Shown here: positions 579 to 16,530 of the stretch, piece after piece
How the letters are laid out: every line of letters starts with the position of its first letter
How positions within the stretch are numbered: the first letter of the stretch is position 1
Assembly: GCA_000482145.1 (NCBI GenBank)
Contig: AUXH01000412.1
Span: 1-17,522 of the forward strand
Reading direction: 5' to 3'
From: Strigomonas culicis
Lineage: Eukaryota > Euglenozoa > Kinetoplastea > Trypanosomatida > Trypanosomatidae
Length of the DNA stretch: 17,522 nt
Notes under the pieces: generated by a model
Told to the model about the DNA's origin: nothing
Databases searched by the model: none
The model's input: only the letters and a program-made list of their open reading frames with translations
Position numbers and translations under genes: made by a program

Positions 579-2273
579 ATGACGACGTTAGCGTGGCCCC
601 TTGCGCCGACAGAAAGACTGCCGTCCGTGCTGTCGGCCGGCCGCCTCTCGTCCCTCCAGACGAGCGCGGCGCCGCTGCTGCGCTTCGTCCCTCTCTACGG
701 CCCCTCCCTCGCACAATCGGTCGTGGCGGCGCAGCGGGAGGCCTTCGAGCCGCTCGCGGTGCGCGACCCCACGGAGCTGATGACCGCGGCCCGTCTCTCG
801 CGTGAGGCGGAGGCGCTGCGGCGCCAGCGCATCGTCATGCACGCGCGGCACGTGGAGCACCTGGCCGCGTCGCTCATCCAGGCCACCTACGCGATGTACC
901 GCGCGCGCCGGCTCTTCCAGCGCCAGCGGCGCAGCGCCGTCCGCATCCAGAGCTGGTACCGCGGCCACGTGGTGCGCGAGGCACAGAAGGCGGCGCGCGC
1001 GCAGCGGCTGCGGCACAATCCCGCGCAGACCTCCTACGAGGACGTCGTCTTCTACTACTACGCGCAGCAGATCCAGCGGGTCTGTCGAGGCTTCCTGTCC
1101 CGCCAGCGCAAGAACCAGAACTACTACGCGCAGAAGCACTTCATCGAGTGCGTCACCGCGGCGAGTGAGCGCGTGCGGGCGGAGGCCGCCGCGGTGCGCG
1201 ACGAGACGGACCAGCTGACCGCGATCGTCACGTCACTGGACCGCGACGGCGCCTACGAGCGCGCGACGGAGCGCGCCCACTTCCTCCTCTCAACGCAGAG
1301 CGTTAAGGGCGTCTACCACGTGGCGGAGCCCGACCCCGCGGCGGGGGCGGGCGAGGCGCGGCCGGCGTCGCTCGGCCAGCCGCAGGAGGTGATCACACTC
1401 ATCGACGACGGGGACGAGGAGCCGGCGGAGGCCGAGGCGGGCGCGCGGCCGTTCGTGGTCAACCGGCTTGAGGCCGACATCGCGCGTAACACGCGTGAGG
1501 TGCGGCAGGCGGGGCTGGCCCAGACGATCGCACGGCAGTCGCACCAGCCGCTGACCCCCACGCCGCACAGCCCCGCGCACACGAGCCCGACGGCGAAGGG
1601 CAAGACGGTGGCCGCCTCCTACTCGGAGGACATGCTGCGGCGCTACAAGCAACAGCAGCAGCAGGAGGCCGCGCGCGGGGGCGGCAGTCGCAAGGACCTG
1701 CCGCCGCTGAAGGAGCGCGGCGCGCCGGCGCGGGCCCTGGAGACGTCCCTCCTGTCCTCATCCAAAGGTCCCACGCTCGTTGACAGCAGCGCGAAGCGGC
1801 CGTTCGCGAAGCGGGACGAAATCGTGTTCGAGAAGAAAGATGCAAATGAGTCGCTCCAGTCGGAAAGCGGCGACGTGAGCAACTACGAGAACAAGACGGC
1901 GCCGCTGCATCACCAGAGCTGCGAGTGGGAGAATCTAGATGTGCACCCGCCGCGGAAGCCGCTGGTGGCCGCCGAGCACACCATCATGAAGGGTAAGCAG
2001 ACGAAGAAGCACAGCGGCCTGACGGGAACGGCCACCACACTCGCGTATAAGGTGTCGTCCACCAATCGCAACTATAAGGTAGGGGCCCATGACTGCACGG
2101 CGCACGCGGCCCCGGTCGCACCGGGGGCTCCTAGCTACGAGGTGAGCACCTACGATGTGGAGACGGAGAAGCTGCGGAAGAGCGTCGATCAGAAGCTGGC
2201 GGATCACCTACACGCGAAGCAGGCCTTCACGGTGCCGGCCGGGCGGGGAGAGCGGTACTACACGAAAAAGTAA
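579..2273 (+). CDS. IQ-motif (calmodulin-binding) protein, 564 aa
   Basis: The protein probably binds calmodulin or a related EF-hand protein through three IQ motifs near its N-terminus. These start at about residues 100 (IQATYAMYRARRLF), 124 (IQSWYRGHVVREA) and 165 (IQRVCRGFLSRQR). The third is nearest the IQxxxRGxxxR consensus. Residues 70-200 are predicted to be mostly helical and rich in Arg, Ala and Gln. Residues from about 250 to 480 are low-complexity and probably disordered, with acidic, Pro/Ala and poly-Gln stretches. The basic C-terminal 40 residues look more ordered. There is no signal peptide or membrane segment. I chose the ATG at 579 because the frame upstream has only a TTG and 579 follows the splice signal. 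Cytoskeletal or flagellar location would fit such proteins but is not shown here. It could also be a light-chain-binding scaffold. Homologues should be sought as kinetoplastid conserved hypotheticals. Confidence 0.88.
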   Translation: MTTLAWPLAPTERLPSVLSAGRLSSLQTSAAPLLRFVPLYGPSLAQSVVAAQREAFEPLAVRDPTELMTAARLSREAEALRRQRIVMHARHVEHLAASLIQATYAMYRARRLFQRQRRSAVRIQSWYRGHVVREAQKAARAQRLRHNPAQTSYEDVVFYYYAQQIQRVCRGFLSRQRKNQNYYAQKHFIECVTAASERVRAEAAAVRDETDQLTAIVTSLDRDGAYERATERAHFLLSTQSVKGVYHVAEPDPAAGAGEARPASLGQPQEVITLIDDGDEEPAEAEAGARPFVVNRLEADIARNTREVRQAGLAQTIARQSHQPLTPTPHSPAHTSPTAKGKTVAASYSEDMLRRYKQQQQQEAARGGGSRKDLPPLKERGAPARALETSLLSSSKGPTLVDSSAKRPFAKRDEIVFEKKDANESLQSESGDVSNYENKTAPLHHQSCEWENLDVHPPRKPLVAAEHTIMKGKQTKKHSGLTGTATTLAYKVSSTNRNYKVGAHDCTAHAAPVAPGAPSYEVSTYDVETEKLRKSVDQKLADHLHAKQAFTVPAGRGERYYTKK

Positions 2274-4667: not shown

Positions 4668-7600
4668 ATGCTTCGGAAGAAGGGTGGAAAGCTGCTGCGG
4701 CGGCACGGCGGCAGTCGGCGGCGCACGGCCGCGCTCCTCTTTGTCTTTGTCATCGGGTTGGCTTTTTTAGGTCTCATCCTCACCCACACCCCCACGACGC
4801 GCGCCCGACGCGGTGCCGGCACAGACGGCCGTGGCGATGGGGCGGAGGCGCCGTTGCAGGAGACCCATCCGCCGCCGCGTCCGCAGGATGTCACCACCAG
4901 CACCACCGCTACCGTTGAGACGGGTGCGCCCCACCCAAATGAAAGGGAAGTCACCGCCACCACCACTGCTGTTGCTGGCACTGCGACGCTTCATACGCAT
5001 GGGGTTCGCGTTGAAAACGAAAAGCTGATCCGTCTACACGTCTATCCGTCCTTGACATTTGAAAAGGACGTGCCAGAGCGCCATTCGCGTCGGGTTCGAA
5101 AAACGTATGGGCAGCAGAGCACGGAGGGGGCGACGCGGCCTCCCGCGGTCGGCACGGATAGTGTTTACTTCGCGCACCACTTCGATCACGCGCACCGCAG
5201 CGTGAGGCCGCTGCGGACCGTCGAGGTGCAGTTGATCAAAGAAAAAGAACATCGGCACTTTTTTCTTTCCGATACCGCTTCCGTGACGACGGCCTCGGCG
5301 GTGGCCAGCCGCGAGCGGCTGAGCCGCATCCATGCGTATTATGCGGGTGCTGAGGCTGCAACGACACCGCGGCTGGACACCAAACCTATTGTCAGTGTGA
5401 TTCCTTGTGAGGAGGGTGGGGAAGACGAGGGTGATACTTCGTATGGCAACCGTCACTTGTACTTTCCTTCGCAGGTGTACGAGAGGGATCCGTATTTCTA
5501 TAATTCAAACCCAAATCATAGTGCTACTAGTAGTGGTGATCCTACGGACGATGCCACACAGGAGCTATTTCCTTTCTCTACATACCTTTTACCGGAAGGG
5601 AAATCAGAAAAGCAGAGCGAGGTCTGTCTTTCAGTCCTTCCCAACACTGCTGGTGCGCCGCAAAGTCCCGATTGTGTGTTGAAGGTACGACATGCGAATG
5701 CGGATACGCATGATAAGGAGGGCGAGGAAGAGGGGGACGCCAAGCGGCTCAATCTCCACACGTTTGAGTACGACCGCACATTTGAATTCCTATTGTTTCA
5801 AACGTACTTACACAATCATAAGAGTAAAAATAAGAACACACGAGTCGATTATTCGTACACGACGGCCCTCTCCGCGGTCTTCTTGTTCCCCCCGGCGCCG
5901 CACGGCACGTCCCCCACGCTGGTGGGCATCGACAGCCCACTGTGGGGCCGCGACTCGCAGCGGCGCATCGAGCGGTTGCTGGCCGCGCGCCACGCCGACG
6001 CGGCGGACGCCGTCTTCCACCACTCCATCACGGTGCAGCCCACGGACGGCGGCGGGGAGGCGCCGCCGTCGATGGTGCCGCTGGTCTACCTCACCCTCGA
6101 CCATGCGGCGCGGCGGCGCTCGACGGTCGGCCTCGCGTGGCTGAACGCGGGCGCGCCGCTGAACGTGACGCTGTTCCGCACACCGCGGGGCGCCCTCGCG
6201 CTGCGCCTCGACTCGGTCGCCGCGGCCACGCGCTTCTATCTCCTGCCCGGCGGCGGCGGCGGTGGTGAAGGTGCAGCGCCGCGCCTGGACGACCGGAAGC
6301 GCCTGCTGCGACAGTATTACTCCGTCTTCGGCTTCCCGATGCTGCCGCCGCTGTGGCTGCTGGGGTACCACTTTGGTTACCACTTCCTACCCGCAGTGCC
6401 GTCCCCCGCCCCCGCCGTTGCCGCATCGCCGTCCGTTGCCCTGCCGCGCGGTGTGCTGACGGCCACGGTGATGGCCACCGCCACGCACGTAGTGGAGGCG
6501 CGCCGGCTGCCGCTCGCCTCCGTCTCGCTCTCCTTTCCGTCCGTCTATGCCATCCAGACCCCCTTCTTGATCGATAACTACTACTTCCAGTATAAGGGTG
6601 ACACTTCGGGTGGTGCTGCAGCGGCCTTGGACGTCTCCTCCTTCGCCGCGCTGCAGAGCCACGTGGCGGCCCGCTACCAACTGCATCTTTCCCTGTTTCT
6701 GCTGCCGTCGCTGCGCCACAGTCTTTCCTCTGTCGTGACCAACACGCTGTCCTACAGGCACAGTCTGCTAGAGCGGCGCGCGAGGCGCGGCGGCAGTCAC
6801 CACCGTCCCCGCGAAGGTGACGGCTCGTCGCCGCTGCAACAAGACCAAAAGCGTGACGTTGTGAATGACTTTCCTTTTTACATTAATTATGGAGAAGCCA
6901 TGAAGTACGTGCCGCTGCCGGTTGCGGTGCCGCAGTCTGCTATCGACATTCGTCATGTTAAGGGCAAGAAGAAAGTGGATGATCCTGCGGATCCTCCACA
7001 GGAAGACGCAGACAAAAGGGAGTACCTCTTTAATCCCTATTTTATGAATGGTAATGCTAATAATACTACTACTAATAATAGTGCGAGTTGGATGCAGTTT
7101 TATGTCTCCACAAACCAGACCCATTTTTACAACGTCCTCTTCGATTTTGCAAATCCAAATGTGCAGAAAAACTACGGCTACCTGTTCATGAAGGACGGCT
7201 TTCTAGATGCCCCCGCCACGGAAAAGCACGCAAGGAACGTCCGCCCCGATGCCTCGTTGTGTTTTACCTTCTTTAACACGTTCAACGCATTCCCGTTTGT
7301 GGTGGCAAGCCAACACAATAATCTCAACAAAACTCCTACGAATGATGTGTTAATACCGGTGCCCATGATGGCCATGCAGTCGACGACGCAGCGCGTGAAG
7401 CGGGTGCGGTCCGTGTCGAATGCGAAGCAGCCGAATTACGCCTTTGAAGACCGGGTGATCACCTTTGCCTTCCGCCAGAATGCACACGCGTATGCCTTTT
7501 CCTATTTATTTTCGTCCTTTTTCGGCGCCTATATCAAGACGAACTTTGCATTTCGAACGGCACTGCTCTTCGAACCGAATCTAAATAACCTGTATAACGT

Positions 7601-9239
7601 GAAAATGCATCCAAGGCGGCGGCAGCAGCAGCACCATCGAACGGCTACGAATTATGTGACAATAGGGATGCATCGCCTTCCCATTGCCTTTTATCTGAAT
7701 GACTACACGTCGGTGCTGGAGAGCCAGCAGCAGCCGAGTGATGCCGCGCAGACGGCTTACTTATTAAGCGTGTTGGAGAACTATGTCGATCAACTGCTGT
7801 GCCTGGGCGAGAGCGGCGTCGGCGTCGTGGGCTTCAACACGGAACCTGTTTTTCCGGTTGTGCAGCCGTCCACCGTGGGCGGGCGCCGCGCGTCCAGCGC
7901 ACAGGCGGAGATGCGTTTGTTGTGGCACGAAGTCGCATCTGTTTTCCCACTCATGAAGACGGAGGTGTCTTTTTATGCGGTTTACAACGCGCACCCGAAT
8001 AACAGCTACTCCGTCACTCCCTACCGTGTGACAGACTCTGGCACGGAGAGCGGCCTGACGCCCGCCGAGCGGACCGTCCTGCTGCACTACCAGCTACAGC
8101 TGTTCCTCTATACGGCGTTGATGGAGCACAGCTTGTTGGGGCTGCCGGTGTTTTCTCGGGCGGTGTCGGCCGGTACGCCTGGCGACAAAAAGGATAGGAA
8201 CATTTGTTTTTGGATGGGAAACACGGTTCTGTTTGTCTGTCCCTTTGAGCGGGTGCAGCGGACTACGGCAACGACGGCGCCAAACGAGAAGCCGCACCCG
8301 CATGTGCTGCCTTTTCAAATAAATGATAATAAGCATAATTACGAAGTGCTTTCGGTGTATCAGCACACGCAGACCATCGTGGCAACGTACAACCATCCGC
8401 TCCTCACCGTGTACGCGCGCGGGCGTGCGCCTCCGACGCACTTTGTGCCGAACAACAAGGCACCCGCCAATGTGTCCCTGCACCTCGCGCTGCCCCTGCT
8501 GCGGCGGCCGCGCGCCGCGCCGGCGGTGGGAGCACCGCCGCGCACCGTCCTCCTGGCGCGCGGGAACGTGTACCTCGACGACGGCATCACGAACACCCAA
8601 GTCGTCCCTGAGCTGTTCGCTTCCTTTTTCAAGAATCGTCATGGGAGGGAGGTGCACAGAAAGCGCATCGCGGTGACGGAGGAGGTGGGCGGCTGCTTCT
8701 CGGTGGTCACGTTTTATGAGGTCCGTGAAGACCGGCGATCCTATTTCTTACTCGAGGTCACGGATCTATTCGCGGCGGCCCCGCCCAGCGATCCGACGGA
8801 GCGTCCCGACACGGCGAATCCGTGTCGGACGGCACTGGAGCGGGCCCAGCGTCTCTGGACGGCTGAACTGACGGGCACCAAGGGTACGCAAACGAAGACA
8901 ACAGCGACGCCTCCTCCTTCTCCGAGTTCGATGTATGACTATAAACAAAACTATCGAGTTGAAATCATCCACTTTCTCTTCTCGTCCGCGCGTGACGCGT
9001 CGTTTTTGCACAACACGATCACGCGCTTTATACAGAATCAGAAGGAGGAGGATCCGGCGCAGCATGCGGTCAGCATCGACTCGGTAGGCACCTCCCCGCC
9101 CGCGTTGGATGCCGCGCGTTGGGATCTGTTTGTATACTTGCGGGTGCGGCCGCCTCTTTTTCTGCACGAGTCGCCAGACCGACAGGAGCAGGTCTTGTGG
9201 TCGCTGAAGATACCCTTTTTGGATGAGGAGGCAACGTAA
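4668..9239 (+). CDS. Membrane-anchored glycoside hydrolase family 31-like protein, probable pseudoenzyme (1523 aa)
   Basis: GH31 alpha-glucosidases, including ER glucosidase II, trim glucose from glycans; this protein has their layout but probably not their chemistry. A basic N-terminus and one hydrophobic segment (about 21-39) suggest a type II anchor with a lumenal or extracellular body carrying several N-glycosylation sequons. Family landmarks in order: VGLAWLNA (487-494) as in the N-terminal beta domain; LPPLWLLGYHFGYH (559-572), matching the barrel-start motif LPPYWALGFH; DFANP (near 840), matching DFTNP; FYLNDYTSVL (1008-1017), matching WTGDNTATW; FWMGNTVLFVCPF (1181-1193), matching QFMxGDxLLVAPV; and YLDDG (1302-1306), as in the C-terminal beta domain. 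The nucleophile motif WxDMNEP is replaced by a segment with no acidic residue (864-875, LCFTFFNTFNAF). Asp1012 keeps the acid/base position. At 1523 residues it exceeds the usual 800-950 because of low-complexity insertions, some AT-rich. The start is the first ATG after the acceptor; the gene ends in four tandem TAA codons. GH31 membership is fairly sure; inactivity is inference from my alignment. Confidence 0.87.
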   Translation: MLRKKGGKLLRRHGGSRRRTAALLFVFVIGLAFLGLILTHTPTTRARRGAGTDGRGDGAEAPLQETHPPPRPQDVTTSTTATVETGAPHPNEREVTATTTAVAGTATLHTHGVRVENEKLIRLHVYPSLTFEKDVPERHSRRVRKTYGQQSTEGATRPPAVGTDSVYFAHHFDHAHRSVRPLRTVEVQLIKEKEHRHFFLSDTASVTTASAVASRERLSRIHAYYAGAEAATTPRLDTKPIVSVIPCEEGGEDEGDTSYGNRHLYFPSQVYERDPYFYNSNPNHSATSSGDPTDDATQELFPFSTYLLPEGKSEKQSEVCLSVLPNTAGAPQSPDCVLKVRHANADTHDKEGEEEGDAKRLNLHTFEYDRTFEFLLFQTYLHNHKSKNKNTRVDYSYTTALSAVFLFPPAPHGTSPTLVGIDSPLWGRDSQRRIERLLAARHADAADAVFHHSITVQPTDGGGEAPPSMVPLVYLTLDHAARRRSTVGLAWLNAGAPLNVTLFRTPRGALALRLDSVAAATRFYLLPGGGGGGEGAAPRLDDRKRLLRQYYSVFGFPMLPPLWLLGYHFGYHFLPAVPSPAPAVAASPSVALPRGVLTATVMATATHVVEARRLPLASVSLSFPSVYAIQTPFLIDNYYFQYKGDTSGGAAAALDVSSFAALQSHVAARYQLHLSLFLLPSLRHSLSSVVTNTLSYRHSLLERRARRGGSHHRPREGDGSSPLQQDQKRDVVNDFPFYINYGEAMKYVPLPVAVPQSAIDIRHVKGKKKVDDPADPPQEDADKREYLFNPYFMNGNANNTTTNNSASWMQFYVSTNQTHFYNVLFDFANPNVQKNYGYLFMKDGFLDAPATEKHARNVRPDASLCFTFFNTFNAFPFVVASQHNNLNKTPTNDVLIPVPMMAMQSTTQRVKRVRSVSNAKQPNYAFEDRVITFAFRQNAHAYAFSYLFSSFFGAYIKTNFAFRTALLFEPNLNNLYNVKMHPRRRQQQHHRTATNYVTIGMHRLPIAFYLNDYTSVLESQQQPSDAAQTAYLLSVLENYVDQLLCLGESGVGVVGFNTEPVFPVVQPSTVGGRRASSAQAEMRLLWHEVASVFPLMKTEVSFYAVYNAHPNNSYSVTPYRVTDSGTESGLTPAERTVLLHYQLQLFLYTALMEHSLLGLPVFSRAVSAGTPGDKKDRNICFWMGNTVLFVCPFERVQRTTATTAPNEKPHPHVLPFQINDNKHNYEVLSVYQHTQTIVATYNHPLLTVYARGRAPPTHFVPNNKAPANVSLHLALPLLRRPRAAPAVGAPPRTVLLARGNVYLDDGITNTQVVPELFASFFKNRHGREVHRKRIAVTEEVGGCFSVVTFYEVREDRRSYFLLEVTDLFAAAPPSDPTERPDTANPCRTALERAQRLWTAELTGTKGTQTKTTATPPPSPSSMYDYKQNYRVEIIHFLFSSARDASFLHNTITRFIQNQKEEDPAQHAVSIDSVGTSPPALDAARWDLFVYLRVRPPLFLHESPDRQEQVLWSLKIPFLDEEAT

Positions 9240-9574
9240 TAATAATAACAAACAAGAGAAAAGAACACTTTATTTATTTCTATCATTGTTATTCATTTAG
9301 ATTGTATTTTTTTTCATTATGTTCTTTTGTTGCGCTCATGCGTTAACCGTTCACAAATCTATATAAAAAGTACTAAGTAGTATCGGAAGTGTTTGTCATG
9401 AACATACATGCTTCTCTCTTTTTTTCGCATTGCTGTTTTATCCGGTTATAAACTTTCATTATCCCGCCCCCAGTTTCCCCCCTTTTCACTTTTATCTTGA
9501 ATAAGCCAACAAAAGTAAAAAAATAAAGAAAGAAAACAACGACAGAAAAAAGGGAAAGAGAAGTGGCTACCACA
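9240..9574. other. Intergenic region between the GH31-like and LRR-like genes
   Basis: AT-rich UTR sequence that begins with the rest of a TAA repeat overlapping the upstream stop. It contains T runs, a C-rich patch at about 9465-9482, and an A/G-rich 5' UTR from 9506 to the start codon. No gene or RNA was recognised. Confidence 0.6.
9474..9505 (+). promoter_or_regulatory. Trans-splicing signal for the LRR-like gene
   Basis: The C/T tract at 9474-9498 is followed by AATAAG with AG at 9504-9505, giving a 69-nt A-rich 5' UTR. An upstream alternative is the AG at 9472-9473, right after CCGCCCCC. The exact site is inferred. Confidence 0.5.
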
Positions 9575-11380
9575 ATGGACATCGCATCCTTCCCGCTGCT
9601 GGCGAAGCGCATGCAGAACTACAACAACAGGAAGACCGCCGGCAATCTCATGATGACGAACGATTACCTCGTCCACACGTTGGCCCAGAATGACCCGACG
9701 CTACATTTCTTCTCTCTCACGCGCTCACTCGCGGATGAGATCATTGCCTCCGCGACGTCCTTGTTCGAGGAGAAGCCGCCGCAGGAGGCCCACCGTGCGA
9801 ATCGAGTGCTGCGCGCCATGCAGGCCCACCACGCCATCAACTCCATCCACGTCGACGGGCAGGCGCTTGGTAAGCTCGTAGCGTTCGATGCGCGGCTGAA
9901 CCGTAACGACGATGCGTCTACTCTCCCACACACCGGCGACCGTGCGAATAGCGAAGGCGAGGCGAAGGCGGACACGGACAGCGACTACTACTTCAACTAC
10001 TATCTTTTCGAAAACAACCCTTCCGCCCCCAAGGCGAAGCTCACGCAGCATGTGCTCCTGTCCTTCTACCACTTCCCGATCCGGTCCTTGTTCTTAAACG
10101 AGCTCCCGCTGGGCATGCATAACGAGCACCACAATCAGGTGCTGCTGGGCATCATAAACCTGGTCGCACACCTCAGCGGCGTATACGCCTTCGGCGCCGT
10201 GGATACCTTCCTCCCGCCGACGGAGAAGGACGGCGGCGCCGCGCGGCCCCACCACCCCCACCACCGCCACGGGACGCTTGCACTGTTAGACCTGAGCAAC
10301 AACGAGGCGCTGTGGCGGGTGGAGACGCGGGAGAGCAGGGATCTGCGGGACAGCCTTTACGTGCAGGAGAGCTCCGGTGCGAGCCCATTAAGTAGCGATA
10401 CGACCCGCACCATCGTCCGCACGCCGAACACCAGCAACACCAGTAACCTCAACACGTATCAGGTGTTGCCGCTCACGCGCACGGAGGCGATGGTTGACCA
10501 GCGGCGCGCGACGCTGTTGGTGTTACTGGGAAAAGTGCTGTTCTTTTCGGACAGCATCGCCGCGGCGGCGAGCGGCGACCCGCCGCACCACCCCGCGCGC
10601 AGCTCGCTCCAGAAGGTATGCTTGGGGGACGGCCGCATGGGCGACTTCTCCTTTCTACACCTACTGAACTACCCGGGTGCGAAGCAGCAGGGACCGACGG
10701 AGGAGCGCTACACCCTCAACCGCGCGCTCGTGCACGTCGACTTCAGCGGCAACCATCTCGTGGACAACCTCTCCTTTGAGCGCGTGCGGCAGCTCTTTCT
10801 GAGCGGTGTGCCACCGCGGCGGGTGGACCTGGTCGTCCACCTCGAGGCGAACTACTGGCGCGGCAGCCCCTCTCGGAACATCAAGTACACGGTGCCCGGC
10901 AGCGGCAGTGACCCGGAGGAGGAGGAGGAGGAGCCGGAGCGCGCCGCGAGCCGCGACGGCGGCAGCCAGGCGCCCGCGCCGCCCCCGGCCGACGCGCGGA
11001 TGGTTGTGGATCGCTTCGGTACGCTGGCGCGGGTGGCGGGGCAGCTGCTGCAGCAACAGGTGGACTGGACGGCGACGCTGTACGGGCGCCGGACGAGCGA
11101 CGGCGCGCAGGGCGATGAGCCGGAGCGCGGCCGCGTGCCGAGCGGCGGACACGCGGCCCCCGCCAGCAGCACCGGGCACGCGGAGGACGGCGATACGGCC
11201 AGTCATACGAATGCGAGTGATGCGCCGTTCACGGCGGCGGCGGAGAAGGTACCACTGCAGTTAGGGTTGTCGGGCCATGACAAGTTACGTCTGCGCATCC
11301 AGAAGCGCATTGAAAATGGAGAAGGTGAGATACTGGATAAGTACTACTATCTAAAGATGTTGCCGTTTCTGGGCAACTAG
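9575..11380 (+). CDS. Leucine-rich-repeat-like protein, 601 aa
   Basis: The evidence for LRRs is partial. Two segments fit the LxxLDLSxNxL pattern: LALLDLSNNEAL (235-246) and LVHVDFSGNHLVDNLSFERV (385-404). The latter is the more typical of the ribonuclease-inhibitor-like class. Between them the sequence is hydrophobic and regular but degenerate, with inserts. A Glu run (about 448-454, from a GGA repeat) opens a probably disordered region to about 560, rich in Ala, Gly and Pro. A basic helix-forming C-terminus ends in KMLPFLGN. No signal peptide or membrane segment is visible. I use the ATG at 9575, not the GTG 12 bases upstream, because trypanosomatids initiate at AUG and it lies downstream of the acceptor. 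LRRs usually mediate protein binding; partner and location are unknown. LRR assignment is moderate, gene reality high. Confidence 0.86.
   Translation: MDIASFPLLAKRMQNYNNRKTAGNLMMTNDYLVHTLAQNDPTLHFFSLTRSLADEIIASATSLFEEKPPQEAHRANRVLRAMQAHHAINSIHVDGQALGKLVAFDARLNRNDDASTLPHTGDRANSEGEAKADTDSDYYFNYYLFENNPSAPKAKLTQHVLLSFYHFPIRSLFLNELPLGMHNEHHNQVLLGIINLVAHLSGVYAFGAVDTFLPPTEKDGGAARPHHPHHRHGTLALLDLSNNEALWRVETRESRDLRDSLYVQESSGASPLSSDTTRTIVRTPNTSNTSNLNTYQVLPLTRTEAMVDQRRATLLVLLGKVLFFSDSIAAAASGDPPHHPARSSLQKVCLGDGRMGDFSFLHLLNYPGAKQQGPTEERYTLNRALVHVDFSGNHLVDNLSFERVRQLFLSGVPPRRVDLVVHLEANYWRGSPSRNIKYTVPGSGSDPEEEEEEPERAASRDGGSQAPAPPPADARMVVDRFGTLARVAGQLLQQQVDWTATLYGRRTSDGAQGDEPERGRVPSGGHAAPASSTGHAEDGDTASHTNASDAPFTAAAEKVPLQLGLSGHDKLRLRIQKRIENGEGEILDKYYYLKMLPFLGN
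10915..10932 (+). repeat. (GGA)6 coding microsatellite
   Basis: Six GGA units inside the LRR-like gene encode its glutamate run. It starts the predicted disordered region, so length changes would keep the frame and probably be tolerated. Confidence 0.75.
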
Positions 11381-11414: not shown

Positions 11415-11576
11415 AACAAGATGATGTACATCAAAACTGTTTTATGGTTATGTCCATTACTATGTATACTGAAAGCTCTTTTTGTTCATGTGTTTATTGC
11501 TACATGTTGGATTTGTTATTACCCTTTCCTTTTCTCATATATCCTTGTTTGGTTTTCGATGTATGCCTCCTTATCA

Positions 11577-11636
11577 TTGTTCCACACTTTCCTCTTGCTT
11601 CCTTCTCACACACAAAAAAGAACGAAAAACAAATAG
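11577..11636 (+). promoter_or_regulatory. Trans-splicing signal for the 11644-14430 gene
   Basis: A C/T-rich tract at 11577-11608 is followed by AGs at 11619-11620 and 11635-11636, only 23 and 7 nt before the ATG at 11644. Both leave that ATG as the first start codon, which argues against any upstream extension of the frame. Confidence 0.55.
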
Positions 11637-11643
11637 GAAATAC

Positions 11644-14430
11644 ATGTTTAAAACATGCTACCTGCGCCTCGCGCCCGCCGCGCTGGGAAAGGACGCAAAG
11701 GCGATGGGGCAGCGTCTCGCGACCGCTACTGGTCCCTCCCCTCCGGCAGCTGTCGGGCCCACGCTGGCGATGCCCACCTTTCGACCTCAGCCCTTCGAGG
11801 TAGACAAGTTCTTGTCGCTTCAGAAGTGCGACATGGGCCACTACATGCAGATGCGGCAGGCCATCTTGGAGCGGATGGCGGAGCTGACGGAGGAAGTGGA
11901 TCGCCTCCAGCAGCAGGCGACGAAGGAGCCGCACCGCCCGCCGCCGCATGGCCAGCTCCGGGCTCTATCGAAGCAGGTGTATAATCTGAATCTCCGCGCG
12001 CTGCGCATACGGGACACCCAGGGCTTCGTGTTGGAAGACGGGCTCCTCTTCGAGCTCTTCCATTTCAACATGCGGCTTCACCGCGCGGCGCAGCCGTACA
12101 ACATGAACAACTACCACTTCGCGCTGAAGACGCTGCTGCACGATCACATACTGCAAGACGTGTTTGGGCTCACCCACGCCGCGCCGCACGCGCATCCGGT
12201 TTTTGTGAACCTGCCGCTCGACGTACTGACCGACTTGAACACATTTGTGTCAGACTTCCTGCTTGTGTTGATACCACCCAGCGACCAGTTCTTCTTGGTG
12301 CAGGACGCGTCGCATGCGTACATGCGGTACCTCCAGCAGCAGTACATCCAGCCCTATTACGAGTGCATACAGAAACTCCACCTACTCGGCAGCCACCTCC
12401 AGGCCGACCCGAGCGCCATTCGCCAGAAGGATTTCAACCTCACCGACGCGCCCGCGCGTCCTCCGGCGGGTCTCTTCTCGCTTCTATTCGCGCACCCGGA
12501 GGACCATCCACTGGAGCAGACCCGGTGGATTCGGCAGGTGCTGATGTCCTTCACCCCCACGTCTCCTGCGGCGCCTCATGCGAATGCCTTGGCGCCCCTC
12601 CAGGAGATTCTCACCAACATGGTCTTGACCGCCTCCTTGCTGGCTGAGGTAAAAGGGATTCACCCGCCCACGGATAGGCATCCTGCGCTTAGTTATTTCG
12701 TATCGCTACAGCACTCCTTTTGCACAGCGTTTCTGCACCGATCCGCGAGACGGCCGTCCCTGCGGCCGGTCGCGCTGAACACAGAGGGGTGGCTCGGCTC
12801 TCTCCCCGCCGGCGGGGACGGGTCGCTCCGGGCGGAGGGCGCGGCGCGGTTGGTGGACGCCATCAACAAGTACCTCTCCTTTCTGTACTACGGCAAGACC
12901 CGCGCGAAGAATGAACGTATCCAGCAGCAGGCGCTGCGCATCTTAGCGTTGTTGTTTGTGGAAACGGAGGCGAGGCCGACACGGGAGGCCATCCAGGCGT
13001 TCGAGCAGGACGTCTGGCTGCCGTTGTATAAAACGCTGAGAAGCAGGGCGCCTGCTGTCGGTGCTACTCCGACGGAGGCCACCGAGCAGCAGCTGCTGAC
13101 CGAGCTGCAAGAGAACATGGCGGTGCATCGGAAGCTGGAAGAGGGGCAGCAGGAAGGCAGCGCGACGGCCGACGACGAGGATGCCCTGGCGCCGGAGAAT
13201 GCGGAGTACGTACTCGACAGCATCACCAACTACTCTATTGTGGAATTCTTACAGCACTGGGGCGCCGATGAAGGCGCGAAGGCGACCACTGCCGACCTGA
13301 ACTTGTCCGAGGCGCGCTTGTACGTCGGGACATTCAATCGCAATCTGGAGTGGATAGCGTCGAGTGCGACCAGCACTACGGAAACGGAATGGCTCTCCGT
13401 GTATCTCCAAATGGAGGAGGCGCTCTATCAAAACGTGCGGCTTCTGTTCCGAGCATTCGGCACGAATGCAACTGATGATACTCAGACTGCGGAGACGAGT
13501 GCCGGTGCGAACTATCCTAACCGTGCGGACCTATGGTCCCTCCTGAACGAAAAGGGCCTGCACATGATACAGTCCATGTTAGAAACGGAAGACGAGGCAC
13601 CAACCGATAGGAGTATACAACCGAGTGGGGTGCGCTGCTATGTGCTGTCTGCCGCGGAGACGCTTCTGCAGTGCCTGATGCTGTCGGTGCCCTTGGAGCT
13701 GAGTCAGGTGTTCGCGACGGCGGCCCGGCAGGCGCGGCCGCCACCGCCGGAGGCGGCGGTTGACGCAGAGGCGGACGTGCAGCTTTACGCGGCGTACGAC
13801 ATGGCATACTTGGGGGCGGCGCTCGGCGACCCGGCGGACGATCGCAGACACCCCGCGCCGGACTGCGTGCGAGCCCCGCTCGCGGAGCGCCTCGAGTCCT
13901 TCTTGGTGTCCTTTATGGAGCTCCTCGAGAAGCACAATGCTGCGCCGCATGCGCGGGCGGCCGTGCTGTCACCCGCTAGCTTGTGCATGCTCACGCTCTT
14001 AACGAAGTACATGCCAGCACCGCCGCAGGATGGCGGCGCCGGGGATGGTTCACCGCGTCCCGCCGCGCCCACTCTGCTGCTGCACTTCGTCGTGACGCAG
14101 GTGGAGGCTCTGCTCCGGCATCCCTCACAGTGTGCCGGCGGTAGCACGTACAGCTTTGGCAATCTCTTCAGCGTTCTGCTGGCGCACTTGGCGGCGCGGC
14201 ACATGTGGGAGGACGTGTTGTTCGTGCTGGACCACATCTTAGGGTGCACCAATCCATCGGACACTACTAGTAACCGTAATAATCATAATGACGAGGAGAA
14301 GGAAAACCGCATCAACAGCGTCACCTTGGAGAGCACGCTGTACAGCGAGCTCTTCACCCTCGCACGCGACGCGGGGCAGAGTGGTGTCTGCATCCGGCTT
14401 CGAGAGAACCGCCAGCGGCTTTTCTTTTGA
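11644..14430 (+). CDS. Unrecognised large helical protein, possible mitochondrial presequence (928 aa)
   Basis: I do not recognise the family. The frame is open upstream to 11482, but the splice signal and first downstream ATG place the start at 11644. The N-terminus (MFKTCYLRLAPAALGKDAKA) has basic and hydrophobic residues and no acidic residue until position 17, which fits a mitochondrial presequence. A second in-frame Met at residue 21 would remove it. Residues about 63-100 look like a coiled coil. The remainder is Leu/Ala-rich and mostly helical, with Ala/Pro/Gly linkers. Two low-complexity inserts stand out: an acidic one at about 495-520 and an Asn-rich, AT-rich one at about 875-890. 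The last 80 residues (MWEDVLFVLDHIL near 854, then TLYSELFTLARDAG) loosely resemble helical-repeat units of the PPR kind, common in kinetoplastid mitochondrial RNA-processing and ribosome proteins. That is a weak hint. Helical scaffolds such as vesicle-tethering or nuclear-pore subunits are alternatives. Confidence 0.85.
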   Translation: MFKTCYLRLAPAALGKDAKAMGQRLATATGPSPPAAVGPTLAMPTFRPQPFEVDKFLSLQKCDMGHYMQMRQAILERMAELTEEVDRLQQQATKEPHRPPPHGQLRALSKQVYNLNLRALRIRDTQGFVLEDGLLFELFHFNMRLHRAAQPYNMNNYHFALKTLLHDHILQDVFGLTHAAPHAHPVFVNLPLDVLTDLNTFVSDFLLVLIPPSDQFFLVQDASHAYMRYLQQQYIQPYYECIQKLHLLGSHLQADPSAIRQKDFNLTDAPARPPAGLFSLLFAHPEDHPLEQTRWIRQVLMSFTPTSPAAPHANALAPLQEILTNMVLTASLLAEVKGIHPPTDRHPALSYFVSLQHSFCTAFLHRSARRPSLRPVALNTEGWLGSLPAGGDGSLRAEGAARLVDAINKYLSFLYYGKTRAKNERIQQQALRILALLFVETEARPTREAIQAFEQDVWLPLYKTLRSRAPAVGATPTEATEQQLLTELQENMAVHRKLEEGQQEGSATADDEDALAPENAEYVLDSITNYSIVEFLQHWGADEGAKATTADLNLSEARLYVGTFNRNLEWIASSATSTTETEWLSVYLQMEEALYQNVRLLFRAFGTNATDDTQTAETSAGANYPNRADLWSLLNEKGLHMIQSMLETEDEAPTDRSIQPSGVRCYVLSAAETLLQCLMLSVPLELSQVFATAARQARPPPPEAAVDAEADVQLYAAYDMAYLGAALGDPADDRRHPAPDCVRAPLAERLESFLVSFMELLEKHNAAPHARAAVLSPASLCMLTLLTKYMPAPPQDGGAGDGSPRPAAPTLLLHFVVTQVEALLRHPSQCAGGSTYSFGNLFSVLLAHLAARHMWEDVLFVLDHILGCTNPSDTTSNRNNHNDEEKENRINSVTLESTLYSELFTLARDAGQSGVCIRLRENRQRLFF

Positions 14431-15924: not shown

Positions 15925-16530
15925 ATGGAGTGCAACTTATACATGGTGATGCGCTGGATCGTGCTGCTCATGCTGCTGGTGTTCACGGTATTTTCCATTG
16001 TGGGTACGACGCAGCCCATCTTTGTGCACGATCTTACGGAGGATGACCAGACCGGCAAGGTGACAGTCACGTTCTTCATGATTCAGATGACGAAGACGAC
16101 GCTGACGGCGCCGGCCTTCACGGTGCCGGCTGGCAACTACTCGCGCCTGAACTACGCGTCCTGCGGCGCCTTCAAGAGCTCCATGCGCGCCTCCGAGGCC
16201 TTCGCGATCTCCGGCTCTGTCTGCGGCTTCTTTGCTCTTCTCTCCTCCTGCGTACAGTGCCTGTTCCGCCTCAAGATGAAGCTGTGCATCTTTGTCTTCA
16301 CCATCTTCGCCTTCGTGTCCGAGTTTCTGTGCATCATCGTGGTCGGCTCTGCCTACACGACGACCTTTTGCAAGAATAACTACACGACCAACTCTTCCGC
16401 CATCGTCTTCAAGAGCGTGGGTTACAAGCTGGCGTCGGGCTTCGTGCTGCATGTCGTGGCGGTCCTGGGCTTCGCGGTCTGCGTCATCCTGGCGCCGTTT
16501 ACCCAGCAGCTTTGGTGCGGCAGCTGCTAA
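15925..16530 (+). CDS. Amastin-like surface membrane protein (201 aa)
   Basis: Amastins are small trypanosomatid surface glycoproteins with four membrane passes; their exact function is not settled. Here the membrane segments lie at about 11-30, 92-113, 118-142 and 170-191. This leaves a large outer loop at 31-90 and a smaller one at 143-168, with sequons at Asn71, Asn152 and Asn156. The passage around CGAFKSSMRASEAFAI (80-95) matches the family's conserved entry into the second membrane segment, where an Arg-x-x-x-Ala-x-Ala-Phe-Ala-Ile-like pattern is typical. Length also fits the usual 180-200. The canonical first-loop signature, which starts and ends with Cys (CxxLWGxKxxC type), is absent: residues 31-79 have no cysteine. 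The protein ends in a Cys-rich tail (WCGSC). No tuzin gene or tandem amastin copy is seen in the window. A divergent amastin subfamily is the best call; another claudin/PMP22-like tetraspan protein is possible. Confidence 0.85.
   Translation: MECNLYMVMRWIVLLMLLVFTVFSIVGTTQPIFVHDLTEDDQTGKVTVTFFMIQMTKTTLTAPAFTVPAGNYSRLNYASCGAFKSSMRASEAFAISGSVCGFFALLSSCVQCLFRLKMKLCIFVFTIFAFVSEFLCIIVVGSAYTTTFCKNNYTTNSSAIVFKSVGYKLASGFVLHVVAVLGFAVCVILAPFTQQLWCGSC

What the first reader, a model, noticed from the sequence alone, without database searches (positions are those of the whole stretch)
4668..9239. GH31 glucosidase-like protein that has lost its catalytic nucleophile and other active-site residues
The fold landmarks of GH31/glucosidase II are seen in order: WLNA, LPPLWLLGYH, DFANP, LNDYTSVL, FWMGN and YLDDG. 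The catalytic positions are changed. Where WxDMNEP should be, residues 864-875 (LCFTFFNTFNAF) contain no Asp or Glu in any register. The first-strand WLDI aspartate lines up with Ser622 (VSLSF). The LSR arginine lines up with Glu969 (RTALLFEPN, 963-971). The GADVGGF aspartate lines up with Asn1057 (VGFNTEP). Only the WTGDN aspartate is kept (Asp1012). Retaining fold while losing four catalytic or substrate-binding residues suggests a pseudoenzyme, perhaps a glycan-binding or quality-control partner of the true glucosidase II. The role is inference.
Basis: partly seen in the sequence, partly recalled or inferred. Interest (0 to 1): 0.78.

Follow-up and report, generated by a model that had tools for sequence, protein, structure and literature searches.

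The report
Membrane-anchored, probably dead alpha-glucosidase relative
A large membrane-anchored protein of an insect trypanosomatid is a very distant relative of sugar-cutting alpha-glucosidases that seems to have lost the cutting residues, so it probably binds or holds other proteins rather than digesting sugar; similar 'fake' glucosidases are known in animals, so it is a neat new case rather than a new kind.

Summary
The 1523-codon ORF is intact. Its GH31 kinship is real but remote: Pfam finds nothing, yet residues 430-640 find only GH31 enzymes in the PDB (9 of 9 rows to E 10, best 0.002), and a bacterial GH31 profile scores 17.2 bits over two colinear segments against 3.0 for the best of 3000 shuffles. 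The genome, Strigomonas culicis by 100% identity of its glucosidase II alpha, shows one intact enzyme of that kind.

No D-x-x-E starts between residues 783 and 1374; 121 of 121 GANAB-type and 58 of 59 bacterial proteins contain that pattern somewhere. The GADxGGF Asp is replaced (acidic in 0 of 240 alignments). Asp1012 is probably kept. The WLDI and LSR positions are undetermined; WLDI falls on an Asp in at least 129 of 240.

One N-terminal membrane segment suggests a type II lumenal pseudoenzyme, like 4F2hc/rBAT and insect NET37 proteins lacking catalytic residues. No orthologue was found, so selection is untested.

The parts
4668..9239 (+). Complete ORF, 1523 aa, GH31-derived putative pseudoenzyme
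   Evidence: the only full-length match in its own genome, the one other row being E 0.36, N-terminal and with two stops; open frame p about 7e-18
4728..4784 (+). Residues 21-39, hydrophobic segment after a basic N-terminus: predicted signal anchor (type II topology)
   Evidence: Kyte-Doolittle 2.76 over 19 residues; no window above 1.6 outside the N-terminal region; topology is inference
6105..6371 (+). Residues 480-568: end of N-terminal beta-sandwich and start of the barrel (WLNA ... LPPLWLLGYH)
   Evidence: profile domain 1; PDB phmmer of residues 430-640 finds GH31 only; hhalign E 2.2e-6
6531..6533 (+).
   Evidence: 44 of 240 alignments against 90 for Asp760; Asp760 favoured, at low posterior 0.05-0.15; block scan prefers 750-752, i.e. 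the Asp760 region
7131..7205 (+). Residues 822-846: equivalent of SSWPDFxNPxxRxWY, upstream anchor of the nucleophile strand
   Evidence: best block match, 15.4 bits against 3.6 for the next place; Asp826 in 225 of 240 alignments
7257..7292 (+). Residues 864-875 LCFTFFNTFNAF: most likely equivalent of TWxDMNEP; no Asp or Glu
   Evidence: alignment A2 puts the nucleophile Asp on Thr871 and the motif Asn on Asn873; commonest placement, 78 of 240; ordered block scan with the broad profile puts the motif at 861-875, with the GANAB profile at 892; model strand 868-869, block pLDDT 49-59
7701..7703 (+). Asp1012, probable retained acid/base (WTGDN) aspartate
   Evidence: 191 of 240 alignments; alignment A2; not recovered by the ungapped block scan, which put the WTGDN block at 1016 with a negative score
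7779..7853 (+). Residues 1038-1062: equivalent of the helix and GADxGGF strand; Asp replaced by Asn1057 (or Thr1069)
   Evidence: best block match 11.4 bits, next 2.3; acidic in 0 of 240 alignments; acidic posterior 0.00 in all six settings
7911..7976 (+). Residues 1082-1103: equivalent of RWxQxxxFxPFMRxH; Arg to Lys1097, His possibly to Glu1099
   Evidence: bacterial GH31 profile alignment; posterior up to 0.88 and 0.57 with the broad profile, up to 0.40 and 0.16 with the GANAB profile; Lys1097 in 167 of 240, but His column on Glu1099 in 76, His1109 in 74, Asn1107 in 67
8055..8246 (+). Residues 1130-1193: end of barrel and proximal C-terminal domain (LxYxLxxxLYT ... GLP ... FWMGN ... CPF)
   Evidence: profile domain 2 in all three profiles
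8571..8585 (+). YLDDG of the distal C-terminal domain (residues 1302-1306)
   Evidence: aligned to YLDDG of glucosidase II in 239 of 240 alignments

Best explanation
The gene encodes a single-pass, N-terminally anchored (type II) protein of the secretory pathway. Its lumenal or surface part is a far-diverged GH31 alpha-glucosidase fold with long inserts. It no longer works as a retaining alpha-glucosidase, because the nucleophile motif and at least one pocket Asp are gone. It most likely acts as a structural, binding or chaperone-like ectodomain for partner proteins, the way the dead GH13 ectodomains of 4F2hc and rBAT do. Shown here: intact frame, remote GH31 kinship, absence of a nucleophile motif, replacement of the GADxGGF Asp, one intact glucosidase II alpha in the genome. 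Inferred: topology, fold of the barrel core, loss of activity, and the scaffold role.
For: GH31 kinship: PDB phmmer with residues 430-640 gives 9 rows to E 10, all GH31, best E 0.002. A profile of 59 bacterial GH31 ORFs gives 17.2 bits, E 4.9e-8 as one comparison, in two colinear segments that also score alone (2.0e-6 and 1.6e-6); the best of 3000 shuffles reaches 3.0. Of 64 control sequences, the only ones that score are P0001's own frame with its upstream extension and two ORFs from loci fetched as weak PF01055 matches.

Loss of catalysis: no D-x-x-E starts between residues 783 and 1374, against 121 of 121 GANAB-type and 58 of 59 bacterial proteins with the pattern somewhere; the stricter nucleophile pattern is in 117 of 121 and 56 of 59 and nowhere in P0001. 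Acidic residues between the PDF and WTGD anchors are 4.3% (8 of 185), below the range 6.5-15.7% of the 75 of 121 GANAB proteins in which it could be measured. The GADxGGF Asp column is acidic in 0 of 240 alignments.

Enzyme elsewhere: one intact glucosidase II alpha with WLDI, WVDMNEP, LSRS, WTGDN and GADIGG, plus matches for the beta subunit and calreticulin.

Membrane anchor. Precedent: abstract of PMC8537225 and passages of PMC8063059.
Against: The register of the catalytic core cannot be fixed by sequence: posterior mass at the nucleophile column is only 0.03-0.14 and a forced alignment is no better than chance. Acidic residues take the nucleophile column in at least 41, and the WLDI column in at least 129, of 240 alignments; an Arg (991) takes the LSR column in 41 and a His (1109) the MRxH column in 74. 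Asp1012, the probable acid/base, is kept. No orthologue was found, so purifying selection is unproven. Nothing tested here shows a binding partner. The structure model that supports the fold was built on a GH31 alignment and is partly circular; alone the sequence folds poorly (pLDDT 33).
Confidence: 0.6

Rival explanations
1. Glycan-binding or quality-control partner of glucosidase II: the dead pocket still binds N-glycans in the ER lumen and works as a lectin in the UGGT/calreticulin cycle.
For: The genome has glucosidase II alpha, a PRKCSH_1 (beta subunit) match and calreticulin. Trypanosomes run a UGGT, glucosidase II and calreticulin cycle (PMC9472816, passages). GH31 kinship.
Against: A pocket position beyond the nucleophile is also replaced (GADxGGF Asp), and the MRxH Arg and perhaps His too, so the glucose pocket itself seems changed. 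Nothing tested points to ER retention. No co-occurrence data.
Confidence: 0.17
2. A still-active but unorthodox glycosidase or transglycosidase, with a migrated nucleophile (for example Asp893, Asp861, Glu927 or Glu969) working with Asp1012.
For: Asp1012 is kept in 191 of 240 alignments; acidic residues take the nucleophile column in at least 41 of 240 and the WLDI column in at least 129 of 240.
Against: No D-x-x-E in the barrel downstream of residue 782 and few acidic residues between the anchors; loss of the GADxGGF Asp.
Confidence: 0.1
3. A decaying gene: a former GH31 enzyme drifting without function, still open by recency.
For: Extreme divergence, homopolymeric inserts (GGGGGG, RRRQQQHH), no detectable orthologue, lower GC3 (0.70) than the neighbours (0.75-0.93).
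Against: 1523 codons without a stop (chance about 7e-18), while such divergence should take long (inference); codon-position GC pattern still in frame; no GH31 signal in 109 other-frame segments of the ORF.
Confidence: 0.07
4. Not a GH31 relative: a lineage-specific protein with chance resemblance.
For: No Pfam match for the whole protein at E 1 or for six pieces at E 10; residues 569-1069 not recognised by any profile; residues 1070-1210 alone find nothing in the PDB.
Against: Two colinear segments, database-wide GH31-only rows for one of them, YLDDG at the right place.
Confidence: 0.04

Closest known systems
GH31 glucosidase II alpha subunit (GANAB type), e.g. P0002 in the same genome
   Same: Landmarks in the same order from the beta-sandwich to YLDDG; model of the core matches glucosidase II structures (the model is partly circular)
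   Different: No WxDMNEP, no GADxGGF, no [FM]RxH string anywhere; membrane anchor; long inserts; 610 residues longer; best BLASTP piece against P0002 21 bits, E 0.49
Insect NET37 (MYORG-like) GH31 proteins of clade IV, Lutzomyia longipalpis (PMC8063059, passages seen)
   Same: Single N-terminal membrane segment with a non-cytoplasmic GH31 domain; reported without the catalytic residues
   Different: Found by ordinary HMMER search; insect, not trypanosomatid; orthology not tested here
4F2hc and rBAT (SLC3) ectodomains, described as fake or orphan alpha-glucosidases (PMC8537225, abstract seen)
   Same: Single membrane segment plus a bulky alpha-glucosidase-like ectodomain that serves stability and trafficking of a partner
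   Different: Alpha-amylase family, not GH31; vertebrate; covalent link to an SLC7 light chain, whereas the first Cys here is at residue 247
Lysosomal alpha-glucosidase and maltase-glucoamylase
   Same: Best single-sequence PDB matches for residues 430-640
   Different: Active enzymes with the complete motif set (recalled)

Membership tests
GH31 (by descent and fold) | Significant profile similarity to GH31 sequences | tested here: met
   17.2 bits, E 4.9e-8 as one comparison, best of 3000 shuffles 3.0; PDB rows of residues 430-640 all GH31; but below detection by Pfam
GH31 (by descent and fold) | Complete (beta/alpha)8 barrel with flanking beta domains | tested here: inconclusive
Active GH31 retaining alpha-glucosidase | Nucleophile Asp in WxDMNE on strand 4 | tested here: not met
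   Motif pattern absent from the whole protein; no D-x-x-E starting in 783-1374; most frequent equivalent Thr871, though an Asp in at least 41 of 240 alignments
Active GH31 retaining alpha-glucosidase | Acid/base Asp (WTGDN) | tested here: inconclusive
   Asp1012 in 191 of 240 alignments, but within YLNDY, not WTGDN, and not recovered by the block scan
Active GH31 retaining alpha-glucosidase | GADxGGF Asp | tested here: not met
   Thr1069 in 104, Asn1057 in 101, Gly1052 in 23, acidic in 0 of 240; acidic posterior 0.00
Active GH31 retaining alpha-glucosidase | MRxH Arg and His | tested here: inconclusive
   Lys1097 and Glu1099 in the profile alignment and best posterior; His1109 in 74 of 240 alignments
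Active GH31 retaining alpha-glucosidase | WLDI Asp and LSR Arg | tested here: inconclusive
   Placements scatter; WLDI on an Asp in at least 129 of 240, LSR on Arg991 in 41 of 240
Glucosidase II alpha subunit | Close similarity to trypanosomatid GANAB and soluble lumenal form | tested here: not met
   BLASTP to P0002 best E 0.49; N-terminal membrane segment; the true orthologue is P0002
SLC3-type dead glucosidase ectodomain (as a mode of action) | Complex with a transporter light chain | not testable with these tools
   Amino-acid permease genes exist in the genome (4 PF13520 matches), which shows nothing about binding
NET37/MYORG GH31 membrane glycosidase | Orthology to NET37 | not tested
   No NET37 sequence was compared

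The most novel reading that the evidence does not exclude
A trypanosomatid lineage turned a GH31 alpha-glucosidase into a membrane-anchored, non-enzymatic ectodomain, a GH31 counterpart of the GH13-derived 4F2hc/rBAT heavy chains, specific to Strigomonas or its close kin and too diverged for the family libraries searched.
Probability: 0.25. Interest if true: 0.62.

Novelty: new variant of a known kind. Interest (0 to 1): 0.45.

Why it matters
Dead relatives of alpha-glucosidases are described in animals. A trypanosomatid case that Pfam and NCBIfam do not see would suggest that such proteins hide among 'hypothetical' ones, and would give an independent example of a glucosidase reused as a membrane ectodomain. 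It lies in an endosymbiont-bearing insect trypanosomatid, where localisation by tagging would be an ordinary next test.

Tried and rejected
Pfam for the whole protein (E to 1) and six pieces (E to 10): nothing. NCBIfam: only an irrelevant weak row, E 0.062. Two homologue searches with P0001, residues 440-1400 (the 7989 best-sharing candidates scored, E to 0.01) and 996-1196 (913 candidates, E to 10): no homologue. The method needs shared 5-residue words and a candidate length of 0.55-1.75 times the query, so this does not show that orthologues are absent.

Single-sequence structure: unusable. Global alignment of residues 569-1132 to the GANAB profile: no better than shuffles. MAFFT strategies with fewer sequences, and one with a shorter query, lost the N-terminal anchor; the 118-sequence alignment used for the model was chosen because it held the anchors.

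Frameshift as the cause of the missing motif: no GH31 signal in 109 other-frame segments of the ORF. N-glycosylation sequons: 9, as expected by composition (9.4 in shuffles), so no evidence. Second GH31 in the genome: PF01055 and PF21365 each match only the locus on C164; the assembly may be incomplete. A genome-contig scan with GANAB alignment A1 found 2 loci, used only to reach bacterial GH31 genomes.

Literature: searches (12 of 54 listed) showed no report of a trypanosomatid GH31 pseudoenzyme in their listings; in the S. culicis genome paper PMC3616161 the terms 'glucosidase', 'glycosidase' and 'pseudogene' do not occur in the main text. Most subscription papers are not held. The roles of the WLDI, LSR, GADxGGF and MRxH residues in sugar binding are recalled; the two catalytic Asp positions are also stated in PMC8063059 (passage).

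Full report
What is there. The ORF at 4668-9239 (+) is 1523 codons with no internal stop. The landmark strings and residue numbers in the finding are correct. Under the gene's own codon-position composition such a frame would stay open by chance with p about 7e-18. Residues 21-39 form the only strong hydrophobic segment, after a basic N-terminus, so a type II membrane protein is likely (inference).

Whose genome. The canonical glucosidase II alpha of the same genome (P0002, contig C164) matches a Strigomonas culicis protein (P0003) at 100% identity over 80% of the searched region. P0002 carries WLDI, WVDMNEP, LSRS, WTGDN and GADIGG. It is the only PF01055 match and the only PF21365 match found in the genome. 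P0001 has no second copy; the one other row has E 0.36, is N-terminal and has two stops. A PRKCSH_1 match (E 8.2e-12, one TAG inside the matched stretch) and calreticulin (E 1.7e-51) are present.

Is it GH31? Ordinary family search says nothing. Three other lines say yes. First, phmmer of the whole protein against the PDB gives three rows to E 1, all GH31. Residues 430-640 alone give nine rows to E 10, all GH31, best E 0.002; residues 1070-1210 alone give none. Second, profiles built here score 10.3 bits (GANAB type), 14.4 (broad) and 17.2 (59 ORFs from bacterial genomes; two loci, L004 and L006, come from the same gene region, so the set is not free of duplicates). In 2000 full and 1000 local shuffles the best scores are 7.4, 6.4 and 3.0 (HMMER printed scores for only some of the shuffles, the rest not reaching its report). 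The two matched segments (about 543-569 and 1070-1193) are in the right order, and each scores alone (E 2.0e-6 and 1.6e-6 with the bacterial profile). Among 64 control sequences, three score: P0001's own frame with its upstream extension, and two ORFs from loci L033 and L034, which were fetched as weak PF01055 matches (one of them scores above P0001 with the bacterial profile). Third, hhalign gives E 2.2e-6 and probability 89% for one segment. I take GH31 descent as about 0.95 likely.

What happened to the active site. Between the two recognised segments the sequence is not recognisable by profile, and a forced alignment is no better than shuffles. Some anchors inside this gap are good: NVLFDFANPNVQKNYGYLF at 822-840 and NYVDQLLCLGESGVGVVGFNTEPVF at 1038-1062 are clear best block matches, and Asp826 and Asp1012 fall on their GH31 partners in 225 and 191 of 240 perturbed alignments. 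Against Asp1012: the ungapped WTGDN block is not recovered there.

Nucleophile. Given the anchors, the strand must lie between 840 and 1012. The commonest placement is Thr871 (78 of 240), with the motif's Asn on Asn873 in alignment A2. Other printed placements are Asn885 46, Val858 22, Asp893 19, gap 19, Asp847 13, Asp861 9; 34 of the 240 fall on places not printed. The posterior is uninformative (0.03-0.14 in total). The alignment-free fact is firmer: no D-x-x-E starts between residues 783 and 1374. The pattern is somewhere in 121 of 121 GANAB-type and 58 of 59 bacterial proteins; the stricter D-hydrophobic-small-E is in 117 of 121 and 56 of 59, and nowhere in P0001. Acidic residues in 827-1011 are 8 of 185 (4.3%), outside the 6.5-15.7% of the 75 of 121 GANAB proteins in which the interval could be measured.

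Other positions. The GADxGGF Asp is Thr1069 (104), Asn1057 (101) or Gly1052 (23) of 240, never acidic; the acidic posterior is 0.00 in all six settings. MAFFT puts the His column on Glu1099 in 76, His1109 in 74 and Asn1107 in 67 of 240. The WLDI Asp is open: Asp760 in 90, Ser622 in 44, Asp655 in 28, Ser681 in 26, Asp636 in 11 of 240; so an Asp in at least 129. Among the 141 runs that keep both upstream anchors Ser622 leads with 44. I find Ser622 structurally more natural, because a helix-strand pattern (DVSSFAALQSHVAARYQLHLSLFLLP) follows it as in GH31; that is judgement, not a test. The LSR Arg is open too: Asn995 99, Arg991 41, Glu969 20 of 240.

How it most likely works. A membrane-tethered GH31 shell without the nucleophile motif, and with at least one pocket Asp replaced, is unlikely to cut alpha-glucosides by the usual mechanism. 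The two usual fates are scaffold or chaperone for a partner and sugar binding. The altered pocket favours the first (inference). The abstract of PMC8537225 describes 4F2hc and rBAT as alpha-amylase-family ectodomains serving stability and trafficking of transporters, and its title calls them fake or orphan alpha-glucosidases. Passages of PMC8063059 (12 of 67 places shown) describe insect NET37 GH31 proteins with one N-terminal membrane segment, and a clade of them without the catalytic residues. So the kind of thing is known; the trypanosomatid example, its divergence and its invisibility to the family libraries are new as far as the listings show. PMC9472816 (passages) states that trypanosomes have a UGGT, glucosidase II and calreticulin cycle, which keeps the quality-control reading possible.

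Limits. No orthologue could be reached, so conservation, dN/dS and the age of the losses are untested. No expression or binding evidence exists here. Sugar-binding roles of the WLDI, LSR, GADxGGF and MRxH residues are recalled from general knowledge of GH31.

Noticed in passing
window 579-2273 (+): Neighbouring ORF with IQ calmodulin-binding motifs (PF00612, two stretches, E 8.6e-6).
   Followed up: no
window 15925-16530 (+): Amastin-family surface glycoprotein ORF (PF07344, E 1.2e-7).
   Followed up: no
window 9563-11380 and 11482-14430 (+): Two long ORFs (605 and 982 aa) with no Pfam match at E 1; the seven ORFs I took as likely genes all lie on the + strand, as in a trypanosomatid transcription unit.
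   Followed up: no
window 7068-7667, residues 801-1000: Local drop of acidic residues (9 in 200) with a rise of Asn, Phe and Tyr in the stretch that should hold the active site; first-position GC falls to 0.43-0.49 there.
   Followed up: partly
L001:463-3201: The own-genome glucosidase II alpha frame has 107 residues, largely hydrophobic, before an MRLSLLVLLLSALLVASVANG signal-like sequence, so its true start is probably the later Met (Met108).
   Followed up: no
L069 (G000:C1:1194-1493, -): The glucosidase II beta (PRKCSH_1) match contains one in-frame TAG; sequencing error, gap or real, not checked.
   Followed up: no
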